This document shows positions 1-42,243 of a DNA stretch of 64,000 bases, piece after piece. Position 1 is the first letter of the stretch, and every line of letters starts with the position of its first letter. Made by a program: the position numbers and the translations under genes. Source of the DNA: Turnera subulata (taxonomy: Eukaryota > Streptophyta > Magnoliopsida > Malpighiales > Passifloraceae). The notes beneath the pieces are model-generated. The model did not search any database. It was not told the origin of the DNA and saw only the letters and a list, made by a program, of their open reading frames with translations. The stretch covers positions 1,645 to 65,644 of the forward strand of contig JAKUCV010007503.1 of NCBI GenBank assembly GCA_028386065.3, given 5' to 3'.

Positions 1-84
1 AACGAAAAACATCATAACATAATCTTGCCTATTGGCTTATTACAAACTCTCGACTGGGCACTTTGCATAGGTCAACACATATCT

Positions 85-2640
85 TTAAACAATCTCGCCT
101 TCCCACAAAAGGAGCCCACAACCAAAATCCTCATCTTCACCTATCTCCTTCTCCTCTTCCTCCTCTTCTTCTATCCCTTCGGGATAACAATCGAAGAACA
201 ACTCAAATCCCGGTTTTCTAGTGTTTGTGATGCTACACATCCATGGTTCAGGGAAACAGCAAAAAGGGAAGTCCTCTTCTTCCTTCACAAAGTACCCATT
301 CAATGTCTTGAAATACGGGGTCATGGGAAAATCCCATTCCCGTTTGATCTTACGTGCTGCCGACCTAGCTTGGTTCTTCATCTTCTGCTCCTCCAATTCT
401 GCCGAGGTCGAGACATAACCCAAACCAAAAGGAAATACGGCATTTACAATTTCCGGGACTTCTACTACTCCTTGTTGCTTCTTCCCCAACCCCATGATCG
501 GAAAAAACTTCATCTTCCCCATGATGTTCATAACTGAGGGATTGCCGAACGGGTCGTAATAGGGAGGCCTCATGGTAAGTTTATCCACCATTATGGTACT
601 GATGGATTCAAAAACAAAACCGGATAGGGACACCTCTTCTTCTCCCTCGATCCCACATATCGGTTTGATGCTCTTCTCAGTCGTTTCTCCTTTGATAGTG
701 ACTACCCCTCCTTTATAAGGGAATTTCAACATTTGATGCAAGGTGGAGGCTATAGCCCGGGCTTGGTGTAACCACGGCCTTCCCAGAAGCAAGTTGAAGC
801 TTGATGTAATATCAAGTACTTGAAATTCCACCGAGAAAGGAGCGGGCCCAATGACAATCTCCAATTTTATCATGCCCAACACTTCTCTCTTAGCATTAAC
901 ATAAGCCCTAACCATAGTTCGGGAAGGTAAGAAATCCACAACTTCAAATCCTAAAGAGCTCCCGATCTTGAGTGGGCAAACATTCAAGGCGGATCTATTA
1001 TCGATTAATACCAAGGGTATCTGATTCTCTTTGGATTGAACGGTGATATAGAGGGCATCAATATGGGCCTCTTTGCTCGAGCAAAGGTCTTTATCGGAAA
1101 AAGATATCCGATTGTCAGCTTCTACCGCGACTATCATGTTAGCCAATGTATCCGGTGCAGTGTCGATGGGGACATGGGCCTTGTTTAAAGTTTGGAGCAC
1201 CTTTTCCCGATGTGGGCGGGATGACATTAGCAAGCCCCAGATAGAAATGTTGGCTTGAGTCTTCTTCAATTGTTTTATTACAATGTCCTCTTCAGGGTCC
1301 ATTATTTCTTCTGGTTCATCCAAACGAAGAGGAGCCCTCCTTGCCACTCTCCCCGATCTAGTGATGACGTCGACCTCTTCATCGGAATCTTCATACCAGC
1401 TCAAATCAAGCACGCAACATGGCAGCTCAGAATCAACCTCCATCATATCAACTTCTCCAAGCAAGGGCAAGGGATTTGACTTGGTATTCGGCCTTTTAGG
1501 CAGAATTATTTCATTCTTATCTATCAAATCCTGGATCTCGTGACGAAGTCGGTTACAGTAGTCCGTAGCATGTCCGGACGCTTGATGGAATGCACAAAAT
1601 TTATTGGGGTCTCTTCCATAGGAGGTATCAGGCCTAGGTTCCAAAGGTTGTAGTAAACCCTTCTCCACGCATTTTTGCAACATTTTTCCTAGAGGCATAG
1701 GGAGGGGAGTGAAGTCCCTCCTATTCAACTCAACTTGTAACGGGGATTGGGCAGTGACATGATTTACTTCCACATGCTTCTTTCCCAGAGGCGTGCTGAA
1801 ACTCCTTCTAGAGGCATCCACGGGCATCTTAATTTTTCCCAGGCTAATAGCATCTTCTAGTTGCGTCCCTGCCCCGATGAGTGCTCTAAAGTTGGCATAA
1901 TAATTACCGACCATACGATCATAGTAAATGGGCTGGAGATTCTTGATTACCATTTGCACTTGATCCTCCTCGGTAGGTCGGTTTACCATTAAGGATGCCT
2001 TATTACGCCACCTTGAGATGTATGCAGAAAACGTCTCCTGAGCCTCTTGCTTGGTTGTCTCCAAGTCCCTTTTAGTCACATCCACCTCAGTATTGTAGTT
2101 GTACTGCTTCAGGAATTCTTTACAAAGGTCTTCCCATTTGCTTATCTTGCTCTCGTCCAAGGACATGAACCATCTCAATGCCCCTCCAGATAACGTTCTT
2201 TGAAATAATTGGGTCATCAATTCAGGCCCGATCCCCATAGGTTGGAGCATCCTCACATAGATCTTTAAGTGAGTTGTAGGGCATCCCATCCCGTTAAACT
2301 TCTCAATATCCGGCATCTTGAACTTCTCAGGTAGACGAGCCTCAGGAAAAAATGATAATCGGTCCAAGTTCCAATCGTCTTCCTTCTTCTTCATGGTCTT
2401 CAAGAGATCCTCCAATTTCCTAAGTCTCTCCCCATCTCCCTTTGATTCTTGCACCACCGAGTCACTGTCTTGGATCACCACCATATTAGGCTCGCCCTCG
2501 GGTTTTGAATTCTGTCCCCCATTACTCCCAAGGGACACTGCCTTCCCCTTCTTCAAAGCTTGGAGTGCTTCCATGACAGTTGGATCCTTAAGGAGGTTCA
2601 CCACTTCCTCAGATACTTTGGCGTTATTTTCCTCACCCAT
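85..2640 (-). CDS. Gag-protease polyprotein of a Ty3/gypsy Tat-like retrotransposon
   Basis: This is an 851-codon open frame. Residues ~120-265 match a retrotransposon gag domain (GGALRWF, the SKWEDLCKEF type core, FSAYISRWR). A CHHC knuckle-like motif (CAFHQASGHATDYC) and the TRSGR motif common in Tat-lineage gags follow. A retropepsin-like domain lies at about residues 540-650. The protein ends in a glutamate-rich tail. Gag would package the element RNA and the protease would cut the polyprotein. The catalytic motif reads D-N-R-S where D-N/T-G-S is expected: codon AGA at 994-996 puts Arg in place of Gly, so the protease is probably inactive although the frame is open. The start was chosen at the first Met after the leader and PBS next to the LTR at 3153. 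RT, RNase H and integrase would lie beyond position 1 and cannot be seen. The CHHC knuckle and TRSGR motifs support a Tat/Ogre-type assignment over Athila, but without RT this is not certain. Confidence 0.85.
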   Translation of the reverse strand: MGEENNAKVSEEVVNLLKDPTVMEALQALKKGKAVSLGSNGGQNSKPEGEPNMVVIQDSDSVVQESKGDGERLRKLEDLLKTMKKKEDDWNLDRLSFFPEARLPEKFKMPDIEKFNGMGCPTTHLKIYVRMLQPMGIGPELMTQLFQRTLSGGALRWFMSLDESKISKWEDLCKEFLKQYNYNTEVDVTKRDLETTKQEAQETFSAYISRWRNKASLMVNRPTEEDQVQMVIKNLQPIYYDRMVGNYYANFRALIGAGTQLEDAISLGKIKMPVDASRRSFSTPLGKKHVEVNHVTAQSPLQVELNRRDFTPLPMPLGKMLQKCVEKGLLQPLEPRPDTSYGRDPNKFCAFHQASGHATDYCNRLRHEIQDLIDKNEIILPKRPNTKSNPLPLLGEVDMMEVDSELPCCVLDLSWYEDSDEEVDVITRSGRVARRAPLRLDEPEEIMDPEEDIVIKQLKKTQANISIWGLLMSSRPHREKVLQTLNKAHVPIDTAPDTLANMIVAVEADNRISFSDKDLCSSKEAHIDALYITVQSKENQIPLVLIDNRSALNVCPLKIGSSLGFEVVDFLPSRTMVRAYVNAKREVLGMIKLEIVIGPAPFSVEFQVLDITSSFNLLLGRPWLHQARAIASTLHQMLKFPYKGGVVTIKGETTEKSIKPICGIEGEEEVSLSGFVFESISTIMVDKLTMRPPYYDPFGNPSVMNIMGKMKFFPIMGLGKKQQGVVEVPEIVNAVFPFGLGYVSTSAELEEQKMKNQARSAARKIKREWDFPMTPYFKTLNGYFVKEEEDFPFCCFPEPWMCSITNTRKPGFELFFDCYPEGIEEEEEEEKEIGEDEDFGCGLLLWEGEIV

Positions 2641-3152
2641 GATGTTCTAAATATTTAAGAGGCCGGTGTCAGGGTCTTTGGCTCCCCAAGGACTATCTCA
2701 AATTTTTCAGATTTTTTGTATGGGAGGACAAATAAAAGGGGCACCTCATATACCTCTACTTGAATTCATAACAATAGTCACTCAGATGCACGAAGCACTT
2801 ATTGATTCATTATGCATGAGATGCTCAGGATATGCAGCTGGTTGATGGCTAAAAGACTGCCGCTAAGGAATAGTTTGACCTACTCACATGTGATAAAAGA
2901 TATCGCGTGAGGTCCAAGGCCTGTTAATCCCTATCATCGCATGAGCAGCGAGAAACCGGTTCACATCAAGCCACTCTCGCTTTAAGAAAGCATTATAGCA
3001 GACTTGGATTCCCTGGCCCTCTTATGGTAGAGGCTTCACAACATTTTCCATGAATGCAAGGCACTTATGATGACACATAAAAAGGCATACAAAAATTCAA
3101 TGATTGCACAAGATTTCTTGAATCCTCAAAAGTCCCCAGTGGAGTCGCCACC
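2641..3152 (-). promoter_or_regulatory. Leader and primer-binding site of the gag-pro element
   Basis: This untranslated leader lies between gag and the LTR. Read on the minus strand, the bases touching the LTR give TGGCGACTCCACTGGGGA at about 3134-3151. It starts with TGG, as expected for pairing with a tRNA 3' CCA end, so I call it the primer-binding site. The stretch from ~2797 to 3152 is clearly homologous to the leader of the neighbouring non-coding element (11131-11481), including the ATGCATGAGATGCTCAGG block. RNA packaging signals are expected in such a region. Confidence 0.75.
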
Positions 3153-3897
3153 TGTGAATACCTGACCCAAAATCACTTGGGCCTATTCACCTTTTCCTTA
3201 CACCTTCTTCATAACCGTCATCCATTATCTTTGGAGCCGCCACCCAAGTTTTATTAAGGGACTAAAACTTGGGAAAAACCCTTCATGTGACTCCATTTAG
3301 GCAACCGGTTTAGCGAACCAAAGATAATGGACCCGGGGATTCGTCATGGATGGGAAGGTGTTAGGCACCCATCCATGTTGGGGCGAAATCTTGTGCAATT
3401 AAAAGTTTTTGTATGCCTTGTGCAAGTGGGTGAGTGTGTTCACCAAAACCAATCAAGAACTGAAAATAAAAAGAAGGGGATGAGAAGAAGATTGGGCTTG
3501 AGTTTCCACCACTAGAAACCACCTACGTATCCCGGCGACCGGGTTCAAAGCCCACATAGTTCTTATATCAGAAACACAACAATCACATCATCATCAGCAT
3601 CAGCATCACAACAGAAAGAAAAGAATCAGAATTACCTCTTGCAGCCCTCCTCTAGCTCCTCGATTCGGGTTTCGCCTTACGCCTAGCTTCTTTCCGCACC
3701 TCAACTCTGTCTTGGATCTCTTCTTGATTCTTCACTTGCTGCCTTGATTAGATGATGCTACCCACGAGATTTCTCTAGAGCTTCGCCTATAGAACTAATT
3801 CTGGGCTTGGAGAGGTAGAGTTTCTCCAAGCTTGAAAAGCTTTTAGGAAGAGTATGTGTGTAATAATGCGTGTCCCTTGATGTGAAGGGGGAGGGTC

Positions 3898-3907
3898 CTA
3901 TTTATAG
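3898..3907 (-). promoter_or_regulatory. TATA box of the LTR promoter
   Basis: The minus strand reads CTATAAATAG. The same box is present in the related solo LTR at 41593-41602 and is altered to a TATGAATAGG-like form in the non-autonomous element's LTR near 12471-12481. Its place in the LTR fits the U3/R promoter. Confidence 0.6.
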
Positions 3908-4032
3908 TGTTCTGGGCTGCCTAGAGTCGTGGACCATCTTAATGATCAGAATAATGGCCGAAAATCTGGACAAAAAACGCGTAGAATCGAATCTCGGTCG
4001 AAAATCGGGGAGAAAACGCGTTCCAGTGCACC

Positions 4033-4135
4033 CATGACCGCCATGGCCGGCGGTCATCACTAGATGACAGCCATGTCATGGCGGTCATCCATACATGACC
4101 GCCTAGGCCCGACGGTCATCTCGAGATGACCGCCC
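4033..4135 (-). promoter_or_regulatory. GC-rich palindrome cluster in U3
   Basis: ATGACCGCC and its complement GGCGGTCAT alternate here. The first pair forms a 9-bp perfect stem around ATGGCC. The cluster lies upstream of the TATA box in element sense. The related LTR has a matching cluster at 12607-12712, and a weaker remnant is near 41730-41810. It could be an enhancer array or a stem-forming block; no function is shown. Confidence 0.55.
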
Positions 4136-4637
4136 GCGCCTACGCGTTTTCACCGCAGTTTCCATTTTTGCTCCGGATTCTCCCCTAATTCCTCCCTGAT
4201 TGATCTTACCGCGTAATCAACCCCTAGATTGCCCAGAATATTCTCTTTTCTTGATTACTATTTCCCCTAAACATCTTCCAATCAATTAATCACACACCCT
4301 CTTCCTATTTTAAGCCTAAATCATACCAAAAACACTCTTGCCATTTAAGGAATGATTTAACTCTGATCTCTCACGAAAATCAGAGTTAAATTTGCCTGCA
4401 AGCAAGGTGTTAGTGGGCTTGTACAACTCTGGAGAACATCTACATTCTACTAAATTGGGCTCTTATATCTATCTCCAACCCAAATTGGATTTCAATACAT
4501 AAATAAGGCCCAAGCTCATAGAATGTAATACATTCTAGCAATCCGGTCCCTAATGTGACTTAAATCACTTCTTCGTACATGATGGACCTAATTACTAAAA
4601 CGTATAAATTTTCATGGGTCAAATTCGGGTGTTCACA

Positions 4638-4910
4638 ATTATTATTGGGTCAAAAACAACTAAAAGAGCCCATGCAAATGCATTTTAATAAATAAACCAT
4701 ATCATATATTTTATCTTATAGTTAAATCATCTCATTAATCCTAGGACTTAAGCGCATAAAGGTTTATGTCATCAAAATACACCAATTTTACTAAATTAAA
4801 ATTCATATCATGCTTGAACCTTAGACCAAATCATCTCATTGATCCTAAGTCTACACATGTACAAAGTCTAATTTAGTAAAATTTTCGTGGGTCAAATTTG
4901 GGTGTTCACA
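4638..4910 (-). repeat. Fragment of the 3' LTR of the non-autonomous element
   Basis: These 273 bp align without a gap to 13061-13333, the matching part of the 5' LTR of the same element. I count about 12 differences by eye. The fragment ends in TGTTCACA at 4910 and is followed by a purine-rich tract on the minus strand. The rest of this LTR was displaced leftwards out of the window by insertion of the gag-pro element. Confidence 0.85.
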
Positions 4911-5012
4911 GATGCCCCTCGTTGATGAGTCCTTATAGTCTAAGGACGAAACAATATAAGACAAGAACAACCAAATTCAAATGATTGATGTGTGTGGTGC
5001 GTGCCATGGGTT

Positions 5013-5202
5013 GGAGCATCTCATGCTCCGCTTCGGGAATCATCTCATCCCGAAGGTCTCTGGGAATCATCTCATCCCAGATTCTCAAGAATCATCTCAT
5101 CTCGAGGTTTGAGGGACTGGCCCTCGGTTTATGGGAATCATCTCATCCCATATTCTCGGGAATCATCTCATCCCGAGGTGATAGAATCATCTCATCTATC
5201 AG
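5013..5202. repeat. Tandem stem-loop array A (invariant loop, varying stems)
   Basis: Six units share the loop ATCATCTCA and are closed by stems of about 7 bp whose sequence differs from unit to unit. Left arms are TTCGGGA (5032), TCTGGGA (5059), CTCAAGA (5084, one mismatch), TATGGGA (5130), CTCGGGA (5155) and TGATAGA (5179). Each right arm is the complement. A seventh, shorter hairpin GGAGCAT-CTC-ATGCTCC (5013-5029) opens the array, and GAGGG-ACTGG-CCCTC lies at 5111-5125. Confidence 0.85.
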
Positions 5203-5230
5203 GTCATTGGCCTGACCATCTTAGTCTAGG

Positions 5231-5605
5231 TGCTACCTCATGCCGAGGTTTGTGAACTTCATCCTATGTCTACCTCATGCCGAGGTTCATCTCATGTCTA
5301 GGTGCTACCTTGTGCCGAGGTTTGTGAATTTCATCCTATGTCTAGGTGTTACCTCATGTCGAGGTTTGTGCATTTTACCTTATGTCCACCTCATGTCGAG
5401 GTTCATCCTGTGTCTGGGTGCTACCTCATGTCGAGGTTTGTGCATTTCATCTTGTGTCCACCTCATGCCGAAGTTCATCTCATGTCTAAATTGTTACCTC
5501 ATACCGAGGTTCATCTTAAGTTTGGTCATTACCTCATGCCGAGGTTTGTATCTGGATGTCACCTTATACCGAGGTTTGTGTCTAGGCATTACCTCATGCT
5601 GAGGT
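5231..5605. repeat. Tandem stem-loop array B (ACCTC-ATGCC-GAGGT units)
   Basis: Eleven copies of a 15-bp unit with 5-bp arms ACCTC and GAGGT and a loop close to ATGCC are spaced about 30-40 bp apart. Connecting segments resemble TTTGTGAATTTCATCCTATG. Some units carry changes that keep G-U pairing, such as ACCTT with GAGGT near 5307 and 5561. Open frames through this array simply translate the repeat. Confidence 0.8.
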
Positions 5606-5739
5606 TTGTGAATACCGGGTGTTCGGTTTTCGTTTGGCCTCCTTATCTCACTATTTACAACTTCTGATCTGTATGTCTCAAAATCGGCTCATCTTCAAGG
5701 TTTGCAGGGGCTGAACGCCTGGCTTGCTATTCTCTTATA

Positions 5740-6060
5740 TCTAGACACCTGGGTCTGGGTTCCTTATGGCTAGGTTCTTTTTCTTTCTGATTGTACTCAT
5801 GTCTGGTTTTCTTTCTAGCCCTACTCATGTCTGGACACTTGGGTCTGGATACCTCACTTCTCTCTTTTTGGTTTCGCAAAGGCCGAGCCTTGGCCATGTG
5901 ATTGGGTTCTAGACTCTTTCTGGTCAGGTTCACTCCTCCTTGGTTTCTCTCATGACTGGGCATGCTGGATTCACTCATGACTGGATGCCTGGGTCTAGAT
6001 ACCTCACTCCTCTCTTCTAGGATTTGCAAAGGTTGGGCTTTGATTTTGACTGGGTTCCTC
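5740..6060. repeat. Direct repeats of about 150 bp
   Basis: The stretch beginning near 5827 (CATGTCTGGACAC, then GGGTCTGGATACCTCAC, then TTTCGCAAAGG) recurs near 5980 (CATGACTGGATGC, then GGGTCTAGATACCTCAC, then TTTGCAAAGG). A shorter related piece is at about 5745. No coding function is visible. Confidence 0.6.
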
Positions 6061-6477
6061 ACTCACCTCGTAGAGTTGACTGGACTCTCTTTTCTTGCAA
6101 CGGCCTGGCTTTGGCTATGTGATTAAATCGGTATGGGCTAAACCAGGTTGACTAATATACTTAGGTTCGGGTTGGATGTGTGTTTGAGTCATCACAGGTC
6201 GGATTAGTCTTTGTCCTTTCGGTATTGCCTCACAGGTCTCCTCATGATCGGGTGTCACCTAATGACCTGGTTCTCTCATCCCTCAGTAAGGATATTGCCT
6301 CATGGTTGGATTGCCTGGATCCCATGCCCTTAGATCACCTAGTCAAATGTGTCGTGTCCCTTGAGACATACAAACCAAAAGGTGGGGTGGATGCCCCCAG
6401 TATCCCGTCATGGTCTTAGGGATAAGGTTCTATGTGGAAACACATGTGATCTACATCCTTTCTGCCTTAGTCAAATG

Positions 6478-7400
6478 AATGGGCCCGTCATGCCCCTTGA
6501 GATCAATCAAAATAGGGTAGCATGCCCCTTGTCCCTTTGTACCAGAATTGGGTCTTACAACTCATTAAGAATGCCCAACATCAGTTATGAACATGAAAAG
6601 TTGGGGCCCGCCGTGTCCTTAGACATATTGCTTGTATTCGACTCGGGACACGTCATACCATTACACATTGACCTTGAACCACTAAATCGAGTCATCTCGT
6701 CGGGACATCCCATGCCCATCATTTACAACTCAATTTCAAAACATGGGCATGGCCTATCCCGTTCCTAAGTCAAACATCCATGTAAAGTTAGGGTCCTTCA
6801 TGTCCATAATCATTAATCGGACTTTATGGTATGGGCACTCTCGGCCCCTTCTCAAATTCAAAATTAAAAAACTGGGCCTTACAACTCATGGAGAATGCCC
6901 AAAGCACAAACTAATTCGGGGCACATGTCGTACCACTATACTTTGACTCTAAAAATCATTAGTTCAAAAGTCATCTCGGGGCATCTCATGCCCATACTCA
7001 CAAATCAACTTTATGGTATATGGCATGATCTACCCTCGGTGTGTAAATCCATCTTGACTCAAGCTTAGCAGAGATTGGGGCATGACATGCCCCTTTTGAA
7101 AAATGACATGCCCTTTTAACTTAAAAAGATCACCAAAACCCAGGCATGACATGCCCTTTTCGTACATGAAGATCAACTCGATAAAAAAACAATCAAAACT
7201 CAAAGCACAACATCTCCTTGTGTAAGTAAATTCGGTGACTCAACAGACCAAAAGATTAGTGTAAAATTAGCTTGACCAAAAATCGGGGTATGACGTGCCC
7301 CTAGAGTCTGCAGGTGCATATCTCAGGCAGAGGCATGGCGTGCCCGTTGTTCTATGGACAAAGTCATCTGAAGATTCGGGCATGCCATGCCCCTCTAGTT
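6478..7400. repeat. Dispersed stem-loop array C (GGGGCATG/CATGCCCC)
   Basis: About a dozen palindromes are spaced 40-90 bp apart. The clearest are GGGGCATG-A-CATGCCCC (7077-7093), GGGCATG-C-CATGCCC (7378-7392), GGGCAT-CTC-ATGCCC (6979-6993) and GGCATG-A-CATGCC (7143-7155). The site at 7285-7301 keeps pairing only if G-U is allowed. Weaker versions lie at about 6481, 6645, 6702, 6829 and 6919. Confidence 0.7.
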
Positions 7401-7540
7401 ATCATCCCTAGGAAATGTAAGTCTACACCATGTCATGAGTTTATGGTATTGTCACTTTCATTGATCATTCGTCCTCAATCAAGTCTACCTTCTCAAGAAG
7501 TTCATGTCCTATATGTAAATGTTGCATGAGCATGCCTAAG

Positions 7541-7645
7541 TGTGTCGTCTTTTCAATGTATGGGGATGCCCCTAGTTCCATATGTGAGTTCCATGACATG
7601 TTTGTGGTGTGTCGTCTTTTCAATGCACGGAGATGCCCCTAGTGA
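7541..7645. repeat. Two-copy 67-bp direct repeat
   Basis: TGTGTCGTCTTTTCAATG followed by GATGCCCCTAGT occurs at 7541 and again at 7608. A further GAATGCCCCTAGT lies near 7870. These lie inside the non-coding element. Confidence 0.6.
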
Positions 7646-10600
7646 GTGGTGTGTCAATGCCTCCAGTCTCTACATGTTTGTCTTCGGATGCAAGTATCTC
7701 CTGATTATACAATGATGTGTTTGCCTCTCGAATGCAAGTGCTCTCTACTTCTACATGGATGTATGTGCCTATGACATGTCTTTCGCCTTTTCTCTTCTTT
7801 CTCCCTTTCATGTTTATGCTGTCTATTTCTACATGTGTGTTTAGATGTGCGTGCTTTTTATCTAGACGTATTGCATGTGAATGCCCCTAGTATGATGCAT
7901 GACCGTTGAAAATCATTCGAGCTAAGGTGTACATTAAGCAACTTGAGAAAAAACGAGTTATCCCATAAAAAGTCCTTAGCTTCAAAGAGAGAGACCCCTA
8001 ATGACCATGAACCATTCATTTCAAGCTCTATCTAGGACACCAGGGGTGGACATTGGATGGACAAATTATCTAATGAGAGTAAGGTGGACGGACGAGTGAA
8101 TACCCCTTTGACAATAGATGGGGGCAACATGCCCAGATGCTTCTATACCCCTTTCGTTGATGATGTCATTGTCAACCGAGTGGTCTATCTCCGATGAGTG
8201 ATCTAACATATGGACCTCTCTTTGTTGTCATTGGCTACTATCCCATTTTCATCTTGGCCTTAACTTTTGCCTAGGCCGCCCTCTCGGATTTTCAACCTAG
8301 CAGGCTTTTCTTTCTTCTTCTTTTTTTTTTCTTTTTGTTTTCTTTTTGGGAGTAGCAATCACAGACACAGAATATTGAGATCACAAAGCTTTGGGCAAGA
8401 TCAAAACCACTCGGGCTGGGTATACTCGGATGACTAATGGAGAGGTGAACTTTCAACCTTAATCGAGAACCGTCTAGCTGAGCTGTGTCTAAGAGACTAT
8501 TGGAGAGATGTGCTTTATAATGACCGGATTCACAATAAATCTTTGTAAGAGAGGCGGACTCGATTGATAACTTCATAAAATACAAGTCAAAAAGAGAAGC
8601 CTTATGACTACAAAAGAGGCCTGAATACAATCAATAGTGTGGCATGTCTATATGACAATAACTCCAATCTTTCCATTGAATCATTCTGGGAACCAAATAT
8701 TGATAGACCGAGCCCGTTGCCGGATGACCTACGTATTTGTGGACGTGGTGCTTGGCTTGAGGTATTTGGTAGGGTCGGTATTTGGTTTGGGGTGTTTAAG
8801 GTGATAGATCGGATGGGGGAACACTTGTCTTCTTCATTAAAATTTTTGTTTCTCTCGATTTCTGATGATGGATAGTGAATCAACATCTGGGCACCATGTC
8901 ATCTCTTTCCTCACTTTTCTCCCTCTTCTTTTCATTCTTTTTTTCTTTGGGGAAACACCGTCGCCTAGACTGTTTTCATGGATTGTGATCTAGAGGGTGC
9001 CCCCTTCTCTCTTTTCCTTTCTTTTTCTTCTTTTTTTTTTGAGGGGAGTGAACCTTTTGAACAAGTGCACTTGGGTTAGATTCTTTCGGAAGCTGGATTC
9101 ATCCTTGGGAAGTAATTCTTCTAGACAAGTGTTCTCGGTGGTTGTGATGGGGTCGACATGTAGGATGGATTGGATACGCGTTCAAAGGTCAAATCAAATA
9201 TGTGTTCGAAGGTCGGTGTCAGCAAAGTCTTCTCAGGAGGTGGATTATGGTAAGGGTTTAGGATTGCATCCACAGAATCAGGTCTTCGTAGTTCGTTTAG
9301 TAGTCCCCTAGATTGATCCAATGGAAAATATTGAAGTCATGCACAATTTGCCACATATACCCAAAAGATAAGGGAATTGAGATTTTATTCCTTAGGTATA
9401 AATGATGACACTATTGATTATTAGACACAGAATTTACCCCTTCCCCCTTCGACTTAACTCAACTCCTAGACTCTGAGGAACAGCTATACCACCTCTCCCG
9501 ACTCCTGGTCATCATACCATCTGGCAATACAGTGTACGGTCCCCGGTTAACCCCCACGAACACTTCTTGTTCACCCCTTGGAATGCATCATCTCCGTTGT
9601 CGTCTTCATCGTCGTCTCCGAATCTTCCCCTTAGTCTTCTTATTGTGTCTCCATCATCGTTCTCACGGCCATCCTCGTTGTTTCTCAACTGTTGGGTCTT
9701 GCGTGATGTTCATTTGATGAGGCCCCATGGCAATGTCTCCACATGATACCCCGGTTTGCTCATCAACTTGACTTGTCAATTCAGTCCCTCGGCTTAGCTG
9801 GTTGACTTGGCTCATCAGCTCGACTCATGAATAGAAAACCGGGGCATACATCCTTGTCTTTGAATAAGGTCCAATCGGGCCACCTTGTGTCACATCTCCC
9901 ATTGTAAATATTAGGGCTTGCATCTTCTCTCACGAGAAGGCCCAAACATCAGTTCTCCCCATTGGTTTGTCTTAGCTTGAATACCCATCTATCATCAGCT
10001 TAGCTTTGCATTCCAGTTCTTTGGTTTCCCAACTCGGCATCTCAACTTGGCAACTTGATCTGGCCACTCCTCAGCTCAGTTCGTTCGCTTGGGCTACTGG
10101 CTCGGCCCGTCAACTTGGTTCCTAACCAAATATGGAGACTACTCTCATTGGGAGAATACTTGGACTTGCATCTCCTCTCACAAGAAAATCCAATAATAAG
10201 GTCTCGATATGTCAACTTAGCTCATCCGTCTGGCTTCTTCAATTTGGTTCCTCATCTCAGCTTCTCGTCTCAGCTCGGTTCATAAGTCAACAATTACGGC
10301 TTACGTCTGTGTCTTCGAAGAAGGCCCAACCAGGCCGTCCTATCTCCCTTCTTCTGCCATAGATGATGGGGCTTACATCTCCCTTCACCTCAGGGTACCT
10401 CTCAGATTCCTAATATCTTCACTGTCCTCCTTTCTACTAGGGTCGTCGCCTTGTAAAGTAGCCATCATCCCTAAAATCTTCACCATCCCCTTTCGACTAA
10501 TGCACTACCCACCCCTAGTGTCCTAAGGGTTCAATTCTAATGACAGAGTTCATGGCCATTAGGGATCCTAGACTTCAGTTTTGTTTTCTTTGAAGATACT

Positions 10601-11130
10601 TGGAAATAGTGAGAAAATGTGACGGGATACATTTGCAAAACACGTTTCATTGATCTTTCAAAACATTTCTTCCCTTTTCTAAGACTCAAGCTAAAAGAAT
10701 TCAGAATTTGAAAAAGTAAGCCACCCTAACTCGAATTCGTGTTTTACGTTATGAAAAACATGCAATGCTTAATGTATGCAGATGTAAATCCCTAATACGA
10801 GGTAGACTGACTGAACATATGCGTCAACTGGGAGACAACACCAAAAGCTTATCCTTGGCTTAGACGTGCATAGTTACTTCCCTAGGGTTCCTTTATTAGA
10901 CTCATTAACCCAAATCACGCAATATAACACCCTACACAGAGTTAGCACGGCGGTCTCGCTAGTCAGTTAGCGAGCAGGGTCAAGGGGCAGCATTCCCTTT
11001 GATAGCCATGGATGATCACCTTCCTTTTCTCCTTCCTCAAACCCCAGGTATGCATAAATTCGGATCCCAAAATAATAAGATATAACACATATGTACAATA
11101 CACGACAAGATCCACACAAATGCAAGTACC

Positions 11131-11481
11131 ACTTATTGATTCATAATGCATGAGATGCTCAGGATATGCAGCTGGTTGGGGGCCAAAAGACTGCCGCTAG
11201 GGAACAGGTTGACCTACTCACATGTGATAATGGATATCGCGTGAGGTCCGAGGCCAGTTAATCCCCATCATTGCTAAGCATCGAGAAACGGGTTCATGCA
11301 AGCCACCATCACTTAAAGAAAGTATGTGGTGGACTTGGCTTCCCTTGCCCTCTTACGGTAAAGGCTTTACATAAATCATCATGAATGCAAGGTACTTATG
11401 ATGACACATAAAAAGGCACACAAAACTCAACTATAGCACAAAGTTTCTTGAACCCACTACTTCCCTAGTGGAGTCGCCAAC
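11131..11481 (-). promoter_or_regulatory. Leader and primer-binding site of the non-autonomous element
   Basis: This stretch is homologous over its whole length to the leader of the coding element at about 2797-3152, including the bases that form the PBS beside the LTR (minus strand TGGCGACTCCACTAGGGA, one base different). Homology stops at its left edge, where the two interiors diverge completely. Confidence 0.75.
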
Positions 11482-13333
11482 TGTGAATACCCGACCCAAA
11501 ATGACTTGGGTCTGTTCACCTATTCCTTTCACCTTCAGCCACGGGCAATCCCATACCAAAGGAGTCGCCATCCAAATTTTATTAGGGACAAAATTTGTGA
11601 AAAACCCTTGAATGACTCCTTAGGCAACCGGTCATGGCGAACCAAAGATATGAGATCGGGGGTTCGTCACGGATGGGAAGGTGTTAGGCACCCATCCGTG
11701 TCGGGTCGAAACTTCGTGCAATAGAAAAAGAAGAGTGTGCCTTGTGTAAGTGTGCATCGTGTGGAAATAAATCACATAACAAAACTAAATCAGAGGGTAA
11801 GAAGAAGAAGGTACGGAATAAAAAGGAAAAATAAAAATATTTGGGCTTAAGTCTCCACCACTAGAGACCACCTACGTACCCCCGCGACCGGGTTCAAAGC
11901 CCACGTAGTTCTTGTCATGGCATCACAGAAATCACATCATCAAAAGCATCATTATCTTCATCACATCACAACAGCAGTAAATCAATAGAATCAGAATGGG
12001 TTACCTCGTGTAGCCCTCCTCTCGCTCCTAAGCGCTTACCACTCCCGCAACAGAATCTGAGCAGAACTTCAACAGAGAATTTGAGGCAGAAGAATGTCGA
12101 TAGGGTGTCTGGCCTGAATAAAAAAGTTGTAGAATTGCTTCTTAGCTTTCCAGAGACACTAAGATCGTAGCAAACCGAGGTCTCTAGCTCTAGATATGGC
12201 CGAATTACTAAGACTGTCTGCACTGGGCTCCTCTCCTCAGGTTCAGCACTTCTTCTCCACCGATTTGCTTGAATCCGCCTCCTTCCTCTTCTTCTCTTGA
12301 TCTACTACTGCTACTGACTCCTTGCTTGATGCTTCCCATGGTATTCCACCAGAGTTTCTGCCTAAGAATGTGTTTCTAGGCTTGGAGAAGTAGAGTTTCT
12401 CCAAGCACTCAAAGCTTATGGGTGTGTATGTGAGAAAGATCTTGAGTCCACGGAAATGTGTGTTAGGGGTCCTATTCATAGTTCTCTAGGAAGCCTAGGG
12501 GCGTGGACCTGCTTAATGGTGAAGATTATACCCGAAAATCTGGTCCGAAACCGCGTAAGATCGAAAAAGAAACAAAATCGGAGATTTTCGGGGATCCTGG
12601 GCACTTATGACCGCCATGGCCGGCGGTCATGGCTTGGATGACAGCCATGGCCGGCGGTCATGGCCACAAGACCGCCATGGCCTGGCTGTCATCTCGAGAT
12701 GACCGCCGGGCCTTCCTGGTTTTGTGCGTTCTTTCCTTTTTTGCTCTCGAATCTCCCTAATTCCGCTCTGATTCGATCCTACCGCATAATCAATCCCCAG
12801 TCTTCTTAGAATCACTCAATTACTTGATTAGCACTCCCCCAAATCATTCCATAATTAATCAATCACACATTAACATCCAATTAAGCAAAAAATCTTACCA
12901 AAAACACAAAATCTACTTACATGATAATTAATTCTGATTTTCCACGAAAATCAGTGCTAAAATTGACCTGCAAGAAATGTGTTAATGGGCTGGACAAACT
13001 CTGGAGAATTAATTAATTTGGACCCTTAAATCTATTCTCAACCCAAGAATAAATCATCTCATTATTCTTGGGTCAAAAACAACTAAAAGAGCCCATGCAA
13101 ATGCATTTTAATAAATAAACCATATCATATATTTTATCCTATGGTTAAATCATCTCATTAATCCTAGGACTTAAGCGCATAAAGGTTTATGTCATCAAAA
13201 TACACCAATTCTACTAAATTAAAATTCATATCATACTTGAACCTTGGAACAAATCATCTCATTGATCCTAAGTCTACACTTGTACGAAGTCTAATTTAGT
13301 AAAATTTCCATGGGTCAAATTTGTGTGTTCACA
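11482..13333 (-). repeat. 5' LTR of the non-autonomous Tat-like element
   Basis: This 1852-bp LTR runs from TGTGAATA to TGTTCACA in plus view. It is related along its length to the LTR at 3153-4637 and the solo LTR at 40404-42243. It contains the U3 palindrome cluster at 12607-12712 and a degenerate TATA region near 12471. It ends in the middle of an Athila-like gag at 13334. The target duplication there would be GGCAC, with its partner outside the window. Confidence 0.88.
12607..12712 (-). promoter_or_regulatory. GC-rich palindrome cluster in U3 (second LTR)
   Basis: The same ATGACCGCC / GGCGGTCAT modules as in 4033-4135 occur here, with ATGACCGCC-ATGGCC-GGCGGTCAT complete at the left end. 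Order and spacing are conserved between the two LTRs although single modules have drifted (AAGACCGCC, CTGGCTGTCAT). Confidence 0.55.
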
Positions 13334-14946
13334 GGCACTAGCAGTGGCTTCTTCTTAGGTGCGGCATCAGGCAGCGTCACCGGCTCGGGCGCTGTCTCTT
13401 GTTTCTCCTCAGACTCGGATGCTGCCACCTTTGCTGTCTTAGGAGCAGGGTCTGGAAGTTCCTTCCCACTCCTCAGAGCCACAGCGTTGCATTCCTTTTT
13501 TGGATTAGCCTCTGGTTGCCCTGGCAGTCTACCCTATGGTGGCTGCTGTTGGGCAGCAAACTGTGCAAACTGATTCTCCAGCATCTTATTGTGGGCTTTT
13601 AGCTGGCTCAACTCCTTATCAACCCTATTCTGTCCCTCCAGAATCTGCTTCATCATCCCCATCAGATCTGAGGAATTTCCTTGCTGCCCTCTTTGCCGCT
13701 GCTGCTGCTGGTAATTCGGATTGGAATTTTGATGCCACCCCTAATTATATCCCTGATTATAGCTGTTATAGGACTGGTTTGGGCAGTGGTCAATGAAATT
13801 TGCCTCCTCTGAATTGTTCTCAGGACACTCAAAGAAAAAGTGAGGTCCACTATAAATTTCACAGACACTATATTAGGCAATAGGTTGTACCTAAGCTACA
13901 GGTTGCACTTGCTTGGTGGTCAAGTCTTTTAGTTGCTTGGAGATGGTAGCAAGCTGGGCCTCTATATTGGTGTTCTTGTCAACGTGATGCACACCCCTTG
14001 TACTGCAGCGCGGCTCATCATCATCTTCAAGGTTAAGCAAGATACTCTTGGCATCCTCATACGGTGCATGCTTAAACTTCCAGTCGGGCGCTGCAGCATT
14101 GAGAGTGCGCCTGTCCTCAGGTGACATGGCGCGATAGAAGATCCCCAACAGCGCTGGCGGATACAACATATGAGCAGGGCAGCGCTGGATTAGATCCTGA
14201 AATCTCTTCCATGCTTGCACCATTGTTTCATCATATTTCTGCGTGAAGTTGTAGATTTGCCTACGAAGCTCGTCTATCTTTGTATCAGGGAAATATTTCT
14301 TCAAGAATGCTTCTTCCATTTGCTCCCAGTGGTGATGTTGTTTGCTGGCAGAGTTTTCAGCCATCTCTTGGCTCCATCCCTGAGAGAAAATTTGAAAAAT
14401 GAAGCTTCTTGACATCTTCAGAACACCCCTGAATCCTGGTGGTGACACAGATATCCAGAAAATCCTTCAAGTGCTGGTTAGGGTCCTCTAGTGCCGATCC
14501 TCCAAACTGCTTGTTTTGCACCATTTGAACCAAGTTGGTTCTGAGCTCATATGGTTGATCATTATTAAATGGTGCTATGGCTCCAGTAGGTGCTGTATGG
14601 CGAGGTCGGATAAGCTGGTTGATTGGTAGATTGGGGATGTTGGCGAAAGGATCGACAATGTCATGGGCAACAGCGTTCTGATGCTGACACTGTTGGTTCC
14701 CACAGGGTTGACCAACGGTCTCTGGATGAGGGGGTCAATGGTCACAGGAGGGATGATATTGCCATGTTCATCCCTAGGTGGGTCATCTTGGCTGCGTGGG
14801 GGGTTGTTGTTGCCGTTATGGGCCATGGTTGAAGCCTCAGCGGTCTCTGCTGCTTTCTGTTGCCTTGCTTGCCTGCGGTTTGCCCTGGCAACGCTTTCAA
14901 TATTAGGGATGTGTACAAGTTCAGGCTTTTGGCTCCTGGTTTGCAT
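13334..14946 (-). pseudogene. Broken gag of an Athila-like Ty3/gypsy element
   Basis: Reading from 14946 downwards there is a gag N-terminus (MQTRSQKPELVHIP) and then, in another frame, a retrotransposon gag core (FLKKYFPDTKIDELRRQI, AWKRFQDLIQRCP, ending near 13891). A degenerate zinc knuckle follows near 13850, with C-E-I-Y-S-G-P-H where a second Cys is expected. The Athila-type motif NAVALRSGKEL lies near 13480. I see in-frame stops after KQVQPVA and again within 13500-13880, and at least two frame changes between 14400 and 14700. It is not functional. The element continues on the far side of the non-autonomous insertion, outside the window. Motif order and PBS support the Athila assignment. 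Confidence 0.85.
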
Positions 14947-33373: not shown

Positions 33374-36300
33374 ATGGGTTGCTCCTGGTTTCTGAGTTGG
33401 GTTCTGCTTCTTCTAGGCCTCTTGTTGTTGGGGACTTGTTGGAGTGTTGATGGGTTGGGGGTTAATTGGGGAACAATGGCTGTCAAGAAGTTGCCACCCA
33501 AGATTGTGGTGCAGATGTTGAAGGACAATGGGATCACAAAAGTCAAGCTTTTTGATGCAGCAGATGACACAATGGTTGCACTTGCTGGTTCTGACATTGA
33601 GGTCATGGTTGCCATTCCTAATGACCAGCTTGCAGTCATGGGTGACTATGACCGTGCTAAAGACTGGGTCAAGAGGAATGTCACCCGCTACAACTTTAAT
33701 GGAGGTGTTAAAATCAAGTAAGTTTTGTGGTTCTTACTTCCTTTTTTGTTTATGTGAATTTGTTTGGTCGGTTTTGATTTCTCTTCTTATTGATCTGATT
33801 TGTGGTTCTGAGGCAATTCCAACTTGAGGTTATTGGCATCATATTGGTTTTGTTGATCCATGTTGGTGATATATGCAAAGCATGTTACGTTGTGGTTATG
33901 AATGTTTAATATCTGGCTTTCTAGTGTTGTCGATCTTTACTCTTTTGGCACCATTGCAGTTGCTCTTTTCTATCTTTGTATCTGTCAAATCCTTGTATAT
34001 TTTCTCAGATTAGAAAAAAAAAAAAAAAGATTGTGCCTTGGTTGAGTTGGCTTAAACATCCAGAATTATTTCCTGGTCGTAATTGACATCATATTAGTTT
34101 GTTTCTGATTGGATGATGGATGTAACAAAGTTCAAGTGCCGGTGCTAGTATGCTTTGTTATTGATTGTGCAGGAAATAATGTCTTCTTCTCTGTTCTTAC
34201 ATTATCAGATGTTGTAGGAAGAATTGAAATATTTCGATTGTCTAGTTGTGAAAAGGTCATTGGTTCTGAAAGATTTTGTACAAGCTCAGACACTCACTTG
34301 ACGAATGAAACTCTTAACAAACAGAACTCTTAACAAATGAGAACTCTTACAAGCGGAGAAACTTTGGTTATATTTCCTCAAAACCAAAATACAAATTCTT
34401 TTACATATTTATACAGAGGTTCTGTGATATTCTGCACTTACACGTCTAAAGTTTGTTTACCATCCAAAGTGCAAGCCTATTTAACTCAGGTTATTCAGAT
34501 TTTACTACCGACTTCTTTTACACACAAAAAGATCCTAGTCCACTTCTAGTCTTTTATCCTTATCCTACTACTAGTATTTTACTTTTGTGCATCTACTTCA
34601 ATACAGACGATATACGATATAACAAAATCTGATCACAATAGGATCAATTTCCCAACACGTTCTATGAATATAATATTGTTTCATTTGTCAGACTTGTCCA
34701 GTTCTATCATTATTCATGTACTGAGAGTAGAATTTAAATATGATGGCAAGCAATAATGGTTAAAATGGTTGACTTTGTTGTTGTATCTGCCATTGCGTGG
34801 CAGTCATCACTTGCCAATTTCAAAATTTAATGCTCGAGTTCAACATATCGATTCCTGTTAAAGAATTCACGGGAATATTCACATTCTTCATGTTGTCATT
34901 GACATGTTCATGCTTTTGGTCTTGGTCTTCCTTGGGTGTCGTCATTTTATAGCATGTTGCAAATGGAATTGTTACCAAAGAAACAGGGAGTTTGGAATCT
35001 CAGCATGAACCATTGACTCCTCCCCAAACATAACCAGCACTCAATCGGGGCATCGGATTCGTGTTATTGGTACATTATTCTATGGGAACTTTATTCCAGA
35101 AAGGCAATAGGTAGCCAAAAGCCTTTTCTTTTGTGAGGTCATTGGTGAAAGTTAATGATTCTTTTCCTCCAATACTGGAATAGAAACTTTTAGTGGTTCA
35201 TTGATTGTGCGGGGTTTTGCCAGTTGTGCTTCATTACTTGATTCCAAATGTATATGAAGTTCCGTTACTTGCAGTTATGTTTCTTCGTAAATCTTTAACC
35301 ATACTAGAGTGAAGTTAGTCTGAACTTCATTTTAGTAACTTTGTGAAGTTTGATGTACTTCTATGCCATGCCTTGGGTCTTAATGTGAATTTGAATGATC
35401 CCATCACAATGGAACTTTTCATTCATTGCTTCTTAGTTCTCTGTGCTGAACAAGGATGACTCGCTCGTTCAGTAGCAAAACTTGCTAGATTTTCTGTCTT
35501 CAATATTGACCTTGATGTCCTGGCAATGATGCTGCCACGCTCCTGGATACTTGGTTGCTGAAACATGTGCTGTTCCTAGATAAAACACTTTTGATGTTGG
35601 AAACTTGATCGCTAGAAACCACCATTTGTTCGTTAGATTTACCCTGCAGCAGTATAAGTACTAATTCAGCTATGCTTAACATGTATTTACACTTATTTAT
35701 GTAGAAGCTATTAGTCACCTGCTAGGTTCGTTTGGTCTTTGTTCTTGTTGCTTTTATTTTAATACTACAAACGCAGCTTTTTGTTGAGAAGGGAAGCTGG
35801 TCTATAATTCTACTATATGTCTGATCATCTTTATTGTCTCTCCACAGGTATGTGGCAGTTGGAAATGAACCTTTCCTGGAAACCTACAATGGTACATTCG
35901 TAAATATCACCTTCCCTGCACTTCAGAACATTCAAAATGCCCTTAATGATGCTGGGGTTGGGGACTCTATAAAGGCCACTGTACCTTTAAACGCTGATGT
36001 CTACAACTCCCCGAACGATCAGCCTTATCCATCAGCTGGGAGATTCCGCAGTGACATCAACAGCCTCATGACACAGATGGTTGACTTTATGAGTAAGAAT
36101 AATGCACCTTTCACAGTCAACATCTACCCTTTCCTAAGTCTCTATGGGAATGACAACTTCCCTCTGAACTATGCTTTCTTCGACGGGGCACCGCAACCTG
36201 TTGTAGATGGAGGTACTGGAATTCAGTACACTAACGTTTTCGATGCGAACTTTGACACCTTGGTTTCAGCCCTAAAAGCAGTAGGGCATGGGGATATGCC

Positions 36301-36961
36301 TATTATAGTGGGGGAGGTAGGTTGGCCCACAGATGGTGACAAGAATGCCAAGATAGATTATGCTTACAGATTTTACAATGGGCTTTTACCTCGACTAGCA
36401 TCCAACAGAGGCACCCCCCTCCGCCCTGGGTACATTGAAATTTACTTGTTTGGTCTTATCGATGAGGATGCCAAGAGCATTGCTCCTGGAAATTTTGAGC
36501 GTCACTGGGGGCTCTTTCGGTATGATGGACAGCCGAAATTTGCATTAGATTTTTCTGGGCAGGGTCAAAACAAGTTCCTTGTTCCGGCACAGAATGTGCA
36601 ATATCTTCCCCAGAAATGGTGCATCTTCAATCCAGATGCCAAGGACCTTAGCAAGCTTGCAGAGAACATAGGTTATGCTTGCAGTCGTGCAGATTGCACA
36701 GCGCTTGGGTACGGCTCTTCTTGTAATGGCTTGGACACCAACGGGAATGCTTCTTACGCATTCAATATGTACTACCAAGTACAGAATCAGGATGATTCGG
36801 CCTGTTATTTTGAAGGCTTGGCCACGATCAAGAGAGAGAACATCTCACAGGGAACCTGCAACTTCATCATTCAGATAGCTTATTCTTCTTCATCCTCCTA
36901 TTTTGGCCCCTCTCTTGTGGGCTTTGCATTTATAACATTATTGACATCACTATTGGTATAG
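33374..36961 (+). CDS. Glucan endo-1,3-beta-glucosidase, GH17 with X8/CBM43 and GPI anchor
   Basis: The enzyme hydrolyses internal beta-1,3-glucan (callose) links at the cell surface. Two exons, 33374-33717 and 35848-36961, give 485 residues with GT-AG borders. Residues 1-28 are a signal peptide (hydrophobic [12 protein letters not shown]), with LGVNWGT at the mature N-terminus. The GH17 domain spans about 29-355. The proposed acid/base is E122 (VAVGNEP) and the nucleophile E271 (VGEVGWPT). Residues ~371-456 are an X8/CBM43 carbohydrate-binding module with six cysteines (C373, C393, C398, C407, C434, C452). The Ser-rich stretch at 461-465 and hydrophobic tail ([13 protein letters not shown]) are a GPI-attachment signal. 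The start is the ATG at 33374, since the frame upstream has no ATG. The layout is that of plasmodesmal or plasma-membrane glucanases such as the Arabidopsis glucosidase 5/6 type. The single 2.1-kb intron after codon 114 is long; 34210-34657 inside it may be an old LTR piece. Confidence 0.95.
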
Positions 36962-40403: not shown

Positions 40404-42243
40404 TGTGAAGACCCGACCGAAAATCCAGCCTCTTCACCTTATTACTTCTTCTTGTCAAATCCAACAATCAAAGGAGTCGCCACCCTGATTTTATTTCTTG
40501 GGAAAATCCAAGAAAAAACCATAGGCATCAATCCTTCTTAGGCATCAAGCATAAGGGACCGATCTAGTGAACTAGAGATTGTTGGATACGGGGGTTTGTC
40601 ACGGGTAGGAAGGGGTTAGCACTAGGCGTGTAAACGAGCCAAGCCAGTTCATGAGCTGTTCGAGATCAGCTCGATGAAAGTTCGTATTCGGCTCGACATT
40701 ATCGAGCTAGAGCCGAGCTTTTATATCAAACGAGCCGAGAGCTTGGCAGTATTTGGCTCGCTAAGCTTGCGAGCTTTATCGAGCCTCATCAAACTAGCAT
40801 ATTTTGTCGAGCCTTATCAAATTAAATAAGCATTTAATATAAACGAGCCTAATCGAGCCTAATCAAGCCGAACTCGAGCGTTTTTACTCTCCATCTAGCT
40901 CGAGCACGAGCCCATACTTTGAAGCTCGGTCGAGCTCGAGCTCGATAATTCTTTTTTGAGCTCGAGCCGAGCCTACCTATCTTCGGGCTCAGCTCGTCTC
41001 GATTACACCCCTAGTGAGCACCCTACTCGTGTTGGGGGCGAAACTTTGTGCAATAAATGAGCAAAAATAGTGTGCCTTGTGTAAGTGTGAAGGTGTGGAA
41101 ATAAATCACATAAAATAATAAATAGCGAAAAATTAAAAAGAAAGGGGGAGAAGGAGATTTGGCTTGAGCCTCCACCACCAGAGGTCACCTACGTACCCCG
41201 GCAACTGGGTTCAAAGCTCACGTAGTTCTTAAAGTTCGTCAATCAAAGATCACACCATGTCAACAACAAACATGTCATTAAAGCATTAGCAAAAGAGAAT
41301 AACAGTGATCAAGGGTTACCTCTGGTAGCCCTCCTCTAGCTCCTTGGTTTGAGTTTCTCTCTAACCCCAATTCTCTTCCACTTTTCAACTTCTCCTTGAT
41401 TTCTTCTTAATTTTTCCTTGTTGGATGCTTGTTGATGCTAAACTTCACAAGAAATCTGCCAGAGTAACAGTAGAAAAGAGTATTTGGGAGCTTGGAGAAG
41501 TAGAGTTTCTCCAGGCTTTTCTAAGCTTAAAAGAATATACGTGATTTAGCCATATAGCTCTTGATGGATCCGTTTGGAGTGAGTGGGAGGCTCTATTTAT
41601 AGGGTTCTGGTAGTGTACAGCGCGTGGACCTCATGATAGATAGGAGTCTTGCTTAAAATCATGTCCATAATGCTTGTGATTTGATTAACGACCCAAAAAT
41701 TAGGAGAAAATGCATTTCATGAAGCCATGACTGCCACTGCGGGGCGGGCATCTGCCGGCGGTTTTGACTTCCATGACCGACGGGTATGGCAGTCATGTCC
41801 GCCCGCCACTTTTACTATAGCGCCTTTTCCTTTTTTAGCTCATAATCACCATTAATTTCTGGTCTGATTGATTTTCAACGTATAATTAAAGTTGTCAGAC
41901 CTAAAATCATTCCATTCTTGCTGACCACTCCTGCTAATCACTCCAATTAACATTATGTGCTCCAATTAGTACAAAATCACCTTTTTTTCAACTATTTCCT
42001 ACCATAAACTCATATATCCTATTAAAGGTAATTTTAATTCTGATTTTTCATGAAAATCAGAACTAAAAGTGGGCTGTAAGGATTGAGTTTTACTGGACCA
42101 GACTCTTGTGAATATCCATGTTTCATCAATTAAACCTATAAAACACTTTAAGCCCAAAATTAAATCATCTCATTAAATTTGGGTTAAAACATTTTAAAAG
42201 TCTCAATTGATAAAACATAGAAGTCCAAATTTGGGTGTTCACA
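40404..42243 (-). repeat. Solo LTR of the Tat-like family inside the LINE
   Basis: This 1840-bp LTR runs TGTGAAGACCC to TGTTCACA in plus view. It resembles the LTRs at 3153-4637 and 11482-13333, including the TAGAGTTTCTCCA region, a TATA box (41593-41602) and the end AAATTTGGGTGTTCACA. It is bordered by CGTAC (40399-40403) and CCTAC (42244-42248), a 5-bp target duplication with one change. No internal region remains, so it arose by LTR-LTR recombination. It carries a MITE at 40623-41013. Confidence 0.9.
40623..41013. mobile_element. hAT-like MITE
   Basis: This 391-bp element has terminal inverted repeats TAGGCGTGTAAACGAG and (complement of the right end) TAGGGGTGTAATCGAG. It is flanked by 8-bp repeats GTTAGCAC (40615-40622) and GTGAGCAC (41014-41021), one change apart. 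The interior is full of GAGCTCGAG-like words and has no coding capacity. TSD length and TIR start fit hAT. Confidence 0.82.

What the first reader, a model, noticed from the sequence alone, without database searches (positions are those of the whole stretch)
5013..5202. Tandem hairpins with an invariant loop and covarying stems in a non-coding retroelement
Six units keep the 9-nt loop ATCATCTCA, while ~7-bp stems change sequence on both arms together (TTCGGGA, TCTGGGA, TATGGGA, CTCGGGA, TGATAGA and one imperfect CTCAAGA). Sequence change with pairing kept is the usual sign of selection on structure. The loop, not the stem, is the conserved part, as for a protein or loop-loop contact. The array sits near the 3' end of a packaged RNA with no genes. 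A role in packaging, dimerisation or hijacking of helper proteins is inference. A mutational process that copies one arm into the other, such as hairpin-mediated template switching, would give the same pattern without selection.
Basis: partly seen in the sequence, partly recalled or inferred. Interest (0 to 1): 0.75.

Follow-up and report, generated by a model that had tools for sequence, protein, structure and literature searches.

The report
Loop-conserved hairpin array in plant retrotransposons
A plant retrotransposon family carries, just before its 3' end repeat, a row of small hairpins whose nine-letter loop stays nearly constant while the stem letters change in matched pairs, which suggests hairpins kept for their shape and loop, most likely as a protein-binding signal in the element's RNA.

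Summary
The window's own genome (518.7 Mb) holds 3,335 exact copies of one unit, GGGAATCATCTCATCCC, against 0 for the reversed control. In the regions I fetched, arms pair far above permutation: 907 of 1236 cells against 503 expected, and 525 of 678 against 288 in seven later regions. Copies with matching flanks show 533 compensated differences against 20-88 when the partner is slid. Units of one array agree in the loop (0.84-0.99) but hardly in the outer stem (about 0.3). The array abuts the PPT and 3' LTR, and the loop recurs up to three times in U3. A second loop, TTTTCYTGG, occurs on covarying stems in related copies.

Best reading: a multivalent cis-acting RNA element, its loop read by a protein, its stem free to be any pairing sequence. 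Function (export or packaging) is inferred. The RNA strand is not identified: sense and antisense wobbles are equally common. Template switching may help keep stems paired, but does not explain the conserved loop, and 0 of 291 loops were inverted. The host is Tat/Ogre-like; a second LTR element appears inserted in its 3' LTR.

The parts
5013..5029 (-). Outermost palindrome GGAGCAT-ctc-ATGCTCC
   Evidence: forms its own hairpin in the sense fold
5031..5055 (-). Unit 1, 8-bp stem, loop ATCATCTCA (+ strand)
5059..5081 (-). Unit 2, 7-bp stem, same loop
5084..5106 (-). Unit 3, imperfect on +, G-U on the sense strand, same loop
5130..5152 (-). Unit 4, 7-bp stem, same loop; duplicate of unit 2 with a compensated C-G to A-T change
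   Evidence: (family D16)
5155..5177 (-). Unit 5, 7-bp stem, same loop; duplicate of unit 3
   Evidence: (family D16)
5179..5201 (-). Unit 6, stem TGATAGA/TCTATCA, same loop
4911..4921 (-). Putative polypurine tract (sense CGAGGGGCATC) between array and 3' LTR
   Evidence: read from sequence; inferred from position
4638..4910 (-). Start of element A's 3' LTR (U3 fragment) with two more loop copies at 4725 and 4829
   Evidence: 261 of 274 columns identical to the 5' LTR
11482..13333 (-). Element A 5' LTR, loop copies at 13052, 13148, 13252
13041..13073 (-). U3 hairpin with a perfect 12-bp stem around the same loop
4922..11481 (-). Element A internal region; no ORF of 150 aa or more; PBS at the 11481 end, hairpin array at the other
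3153..4637 (-). LTR of element B, apparently inserted in the loop of A's outer U3 hairpin
   Evidence: 71-77% identity to A's LTR over its main part; junction
85..2640 (-). gag ORF of element B (851 aa)
   Evidence: Retrotrans_gag, E 1.3e-11
42153..42183 (-). Same loop on a diverged stem in another LTR copy

Best explanation
A repeated cis-acting hairpin element of a Tat/Ogre-like Ty3/gypsy LTR-retrotransposon family. Each unit is a stem of about 6-8 bp of nearly any sequence that presents a conserved 9-nt loop closed by A-U (sense A[UGRGANNAU]U). Up to about 20 units stand directly 5' of the PPT, and up to three more in U3, so the full-length RNA would carry a cluster of like loops around its 3' end. 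SHOWN: abundance, position, loop conservation, compensated stem changes, one loop orientation, and a second loop class in related copies. INFERRED: it acts in the sense RNA as a multivalent platform for one protein, the element's Gag or a host RNA-binding protein, for export or packaging of full-length RNA, as repeated elements near the 3' LTR do in some simple retroviruses. Elements with gag remnants and gene-less elements share it, so a non-coding element could be mobilised through it.
For: 3,335 exact units against 0 controls. Pairing above permutation in two sets. Compensated differences 533 against 20-88 with slid partners, one pair at a time (466 unit pairs with one, 30 with two to four). 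Loop conserved when places are found by flanks only or by stem only (36 of the 50 places listed have this loop or a near variant). Units share the loop, not the outer stem. Array abuts the U3 start in 14 of 20 regions. Sense RNA folds into the full set of hairpins. Two array regions have gag and no reverse transcriptase found; others have no gag match.
Against: No strand preference of wobble mismatches (107 sense, 128 antisense; 63 and 49), whereas selection on one RNA strand should favour its own G-U pairs. In the formal test on two orthologous units the number of pairs changed on both sides does not exceed shuffles (415 and 228 of 500 reach it), nor does the number of pair types. Stems in U3 are less regular; in several copies the -281 stem is imperfect. 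No expression, probing or binding data exist here, and no intact helper element was found.
Confidence: 0.5

Rival explanations
1. Template switching between the arms (quasipalindrome correction), in DNA replication or reverse transcription, copies one arm into the other, so stems stay matched without selection on pairing.
For: Such maintenance of hairpins is documented (PMC8794818 and PMC8604942; listing and passages). Wobble mismatches show no strand bias, as a DNA process predicts.
Against: It gives no reason for a conserved loop on free stems. Inverted loops, one possible product, are 0 against 291 in 36 arrays; the same papers find them rare, so this is weak. Double changes are mostly single pairs and transitions (489 of 533), which suits stepwise change but does not exclude template switching after one mutation.
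Confidence: 0.25
2. The hairpin works as DNA: single-stranded cDNA in reverse transcription, or an extruded cruciform, bound through the loop.
For: The array and the U3 copies lie on both sides of the PPT, where plus-strand DNA starts. No RNA strand is favoured by wobbles.
Against: Binding of double-stranded DNA would not need arbitrary inverted repeats. The sense RNA forms the hairpins cleanly.
Confidence: 0.12
3. Loop-loop or loop-RNA base pairing (kissing, dimerisation, pairing to a host RNA).
For: A conserved 9-nt loop on free stems would suit it.
Against: The loop is not self-complementary. Matches to AATCATCTCATC with up to one mismatch in the window are all on one strand. Shorter complementary sites and host RNAs were not searched.
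Confidence: 0.07
4. Ordinary tandem-repeat turnover of a hypervariable 3' region, with no function.
For: Such regions are common in this lineage (PMC11963269, abstract and passages), and parts of these arrays are recent duplications (family D16).
Against: Turnover homogenises the whole unit; here the loop is kept while outer stems and flanks of neighbouring units are near random, and pairing is kept.
Confidence: 0.06

Closest known systems
[quoted passage not shown] PMC11963269, PMC3305785)
   Same: Same kind of element and same place; variable number of units.
   Different: Those are described as family-specific repeats. The words hairpin and secondary structure have no hits in either paper's main text. 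Here the conserved part is a loop on freely varying paired stems.
Retroviral constitutive transport element and RSV direct repeats (PMC7551171, passages)
   Same: Works alike in outline: a repeated structured cis RNA element; its position near the 3' LTR is recalled.
   Different: No sequence relation was tested or claimed; binding of NXF1 or any protein is not shown here; more units and simple terminal loops.
Retroviral packaging signals with repeated conserved loops
   Same: Loop-conserved hairpins that could bind Gag (recalled).
   Different: Those usually lie near the 5' end of the RNA (recalled); here they lie at the 3' end.
Non-autonomous plant LTR elements (LARD, TR-GAG)
   Same: LTRs, PBS and PPT with no gene or with gag only.
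   Different: A hairpin array is not part of those definitions (recalled).

Membership tests
Ty3/gypsy, OTA/Tat lineage (Ogre or Retand) | gag related to Tat/Ogre gag | tested here: met
   Element B gag: Retrotrans_gag; 25 homologues, among them plant gag-pol proteins and one from Lathyrus oleraceus at 32% over 23% of the query. That these are Tat/Ogre proteins is recalled.
Ty3/gypsy, OTA/Tat lineage (Ogre or Retand) | Reverse transcriptase phylogeny and archaeal-type RNase H | not testable with these tools
   No pol in the window's two elements; four gag-pol queries found a reverse transcriptase part only in L020, beyond the LTR. Criterion from PMC6317226, passages.
Ty3/gypsy, OTA/Tat lineage (Ogre or Retand) | PBS next to the 5' LTR with a non-Met tRNA | tested here: inconclusive
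   Both elements have TGGCGACTCCACT-type sequence beside the LTR; complementarity to tRNA-Arg is recalled, not tested.
Ty3/gypsy, OTA/Tat lineage (Ogre or Retand) | Extra ORF, often antisense, between gag-pol and 3' LTR | tested here: inconclusive
   Antisense DUF7745 ORF in L025 (26.8 bits, cut-off 26) and below cut-off in L012 (19.8 bits); none in the window (one search lists short ORFs only, not searched).
Constitutive transport element / RSV direct repeat (as a family) | Recruits NXF1 and exports unspliced RNA | not testable with these tools
   Analogy of working only.
Any Rfam family | Match above gathering score | tested here: not met
   Window 1-14000: two sub-threshold matches, neither in the array.
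Non-autonomous LTR element (LARD-like) | LTRs, PBS, PPT and no coding capacity | tested here: met
   Element A: no ORF of 150 aa or more between the LTRs; largest listed 139 aa. The PPT is read from position only.

The most novel reading that the evidence does not exclude
A loop-coded, multivalent RNA recognition system in plant LTR-retrotransposons: each subfamily carries its own loop word (sense UGRGANNAU; CCARGAAAA) on freely drifting stems around the PPT, read by a matching protein. Gene-less elements are mobilised by carrying the word, and subfamilies diverge by changing it.
Probability: 0.3. Interest if true: 0.82.

Novelty: new variant of a known kind. Interest (0 to 1): 0.62.

Why it matters
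How gene-less plant LTR elements are recognised by a helper, and what the long, fast-changing 3' region of Tat-lineage elements does, are open questions as far as I recall. A loop word present in thousands of copies, on stems that vary naturally, makes both testable: one can ask what binds the loop and which elements share it.

Tried and rejected
Relatives outside this genome: viral-contig scans and genome-contig scans gave no relative. There was one isolated loop match in L001, and two exact PBS-like matches in bacterial MAG records, L002 and L003, not examined further. Rfam gave nothing above threshold. Wobble strand bias as a test of the RNA strand: none. One search showed 73 antisense against 42 sense wobbles; most of the excess is at pairs 6 and 7, where base composition predicts it. 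Hairpin energies favour the sense strand in 213 of 297 units, the antisense strand in 79; sense is lower in 19 of 30 arrays. I do not lean on this, because I think the energy model favours that loop's end mismatch (recalled). A tandem G-A pair inside the loop was considered; loop variants do not support it cleanly. The ACCTC..GAGGT repeat as an internal control was too small to use. The genome-wide count of half-changed stems and the search for an intact helper were not done, because the server did not answer.

Full report
What was checked. The window is plant nuclear DNA: a GH17 ORF at 35834-36961 has its best named hit in Ricinus (84%), then Jatropha and Populus; 'Malpighiales-like' is my reading. 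In the sense (minus strand) RNA 5005-5205 folds into eight neighbouring hairpins, the six units and two others, z -5.6. The + strand gives z -4.0 with a less regular fold; both have 0 of 200 shuffles as low.

Anatomy. Element A lies on the minus strand: 5' LTR 11482-13333, a PBS beside it, an internal region of about 6.6 kb with no ORF of 150 aa or more, the hairpin array, a putative PPT at about 4911-4921, and the first 273 nt of its 3' LTR at 4638-4910. That piece matches the 5' LTR in 261 of 274 columns. The LTR that follows, 3153-4637, is only 71-77% like A's LTR over its main part and leads into element B, whose gag ORF is 2640-85. B's LTR begins at what is, in A's 5' LTR, the end of the loop of a perfect 12-bp hairpin (13041-13073). 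So B most simply sits as a nested insertion in A's 3' LTR. Its other end is not visible: the 1,644 bases before the window carry no letters I could use.

Copies. Exact GGGAATCATCTCATCCC occurs 1648 + 1687 times in the genome; the reversed control occurs 0 times. I took 35 stretches from the first 100 listed places, 7 more found through a stem search and 10 around a second hairpin. In 14 of 20 stretches of 6-9 kb a match to window 4912-5215 lies within 10 nt of the U3 match; the other six show one or a few loops without that arrangement, or no array match. U3 has the loop at about -81, -185 and -281. Of 20 LTR ends with at least one exact loop, 10 have all three. Their stems are less regular than those of the array, and the -281 stem is imperfect in many copies.

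Covariation. In 309 exact-loop instances the W-C fraction at the first seven pairs is .94.93.89.82.73.69.56, against .93.64.40.34.32.30.27 from column composition. For 206 distinct units, 907 of 1236 cells at pairs 2-7 are W-C (permuted mean 502.6, maximum of 300 permutations 554). In the seven later stretches it is 525 of 678 (mean 288.1, maximum of 500 permutations 343); these were found through one stem, so they are not fully independent of pairing. Among 1948 pairs of units from different stretches with matching flanks, 825 arm positions differ on both sides, 533 of them W-C to W-C. Sliding the partner by +1, +2, +3 and -1 gives 74, 50, 20 and 88. These counts are of related sequences, not independent events. 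Over 13 clusters, extra W-C pair types seen in at least two stretches each number 13, against 6, 3 and 1 when slid by 1, 2 and 3. On two orthologous units (24 and 28 sequences) the covariation score exceeds every slide, and 17 and 1 of 500 shuffles reach it. The number of pairs changed on both sides (2 in each) is reached by 415 and 228 of 500 shuffles, and the number of pair types does not exceed shuffles either.

Loop. From 12 seed units, flanks alone find 150 places (seeds included); 101 have the seed's spacing and 63 of those keep A-ATCATCTCA-T exactly. Divergence from it is .01-.06 at eight of eleven positions and .12-.20 at three, hence sense A[UGRGANNAU]U. Between units of one stretch, identity is .84-.99 in the eleven loop positions.75-.78 at the next pair.45 at the one after and about .3-.4 beyond (loops there were pre-selected to within two changes). 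With a stem fixed and 6-12 nt free, the listing shows the first 50 places: 28 have ATCATCTCA, 8 a variant with 1-3 changes, 11 TTTTCCTGG or a near variant, 3 something else (my count; 853 places in all, 210 for the reversed control). In 31 array zones hairpins with a 9-nt loop and 6 pairs number 171 against 8.6 in shuffles; excesses at loop lengths 11 and 13 are largely the same hairpins with inner pairs left open.

A second loop. L022, whose LTR is 77-82% like B's, has CTCTTGGGA-ttttcctgg-TCCCAAGAG and CTTTTGGGA-ttttcttgg-TCCCAAAAG between two ATCATCTCA units. Ten more stretches, chosen by this stem and loop, add GTCTTGGGA and others with matched right arms. The LTR type of those ten was not tested.

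Which strand, and selection or mutation. Mismatches that would be G-U in sense RNA and in antisense RNA are equally common: 107 and 128, 63 and 49. So the data do not identify the RNA strand; they fit decay of dead copies, or template switching, as well as RNA selection. Template switching between arms is documented to create and maintain hairpins (PMC8794818, PMC8604942; listing and passages). It would not by itself keep a loop sequence. No inverted loop was seen beside 291 hairpins in 36 arrays, and compensated changes come mostly one pair at a time (466 unit pairs with one, 25 with two, 5 with more). I conclude that loop and hairpin shape are constrained, with template switching possibly helping.

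Function. Position at the 3' end of the RNA, repetition, a conserved loop and free stems resemble repeated export elements of simple retroviruses. The MPMV CTE recruits NXF1, and the RSV direct repeats bind NXF1 and DDX5 (PMC7551171, passages); their position near the 3' LTR is recalled. This is an analogy of working, not membership. Array stretches include gag-bearing ones with an antisense DUF7745 ORF (L025 above, L012 below the Pfam cut-off) and no reverse transcriptase found with four queries, and ones without a gag match. This suits a cis-acting signal served by proteins from elsewhere, which is inference.

Prior description. Of ten paper searches those combined retrotransposon with hairpin or structure terms. 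One search found no paper, and no listed title names such hairpins; most listed papers were not read. PMC11963269 (abstract and passages) and PMC3305785 (one passage) have no hits for 'hairpin'. The library is open access only, so novelty is provisional.

Noticed in passing
window 3153-4910 and 13041-13073: Element B's LTR starts at the end of the loop of element A's outer U3 hairpin, so B looks inserted in a hairpin loop; candidate target-site bases ATTAT at 4638-4642. The far end lies outside the window.
   Followed up: partly
window 3243-3273 and 11573-11597: LTR hairpin CCCAAGTTTTA/TAAAACTTGGG; its sense strand holds AATAAA at the loop-stem border. The other LTR has a paired G-C to A-T change (CAAATTTT/AAAATTTG).
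   Followed up: no
window 4033-4134 and 12607-12707: Tandem 31-nt repeats made of ATGACCGCC/GGCGGTCAT inverted repeats in both LTRs.
   Followed up: no
window 5228-5610: About ten short palindromes ACCTC-ATGCC-GAGGT next to the array, with conserved rather than covarying stems; looked at across loci, too few to judge.
   Followed up: partly
window 6973-7394: Scattered palindromes of the type GGGGCAT-gac-ATGCCCC with varying centres.
   Followed up: no
L022 4424-4510; L055, L057-L064: Second 9-nt loop, TTTTCYTGG, on covarying stems, partly interleaved with ATCATCTCA units.
   Followed up: partly
L022 about 4520-4900: Tandem repeat GGATATTATCACCCTCCYGTGGGGATTTTGCC directly behind the hairpins.
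   Followed up: no
L056: Several AACATCGATGTT palindromes close together near a TTTTCCTGG hairpin.
   Followed up: no
L025 2626-3342 and L012 2114-2551: ORFs antisense to gag with weak DUF7745 matches between gag and the array.
   Followed up: partly
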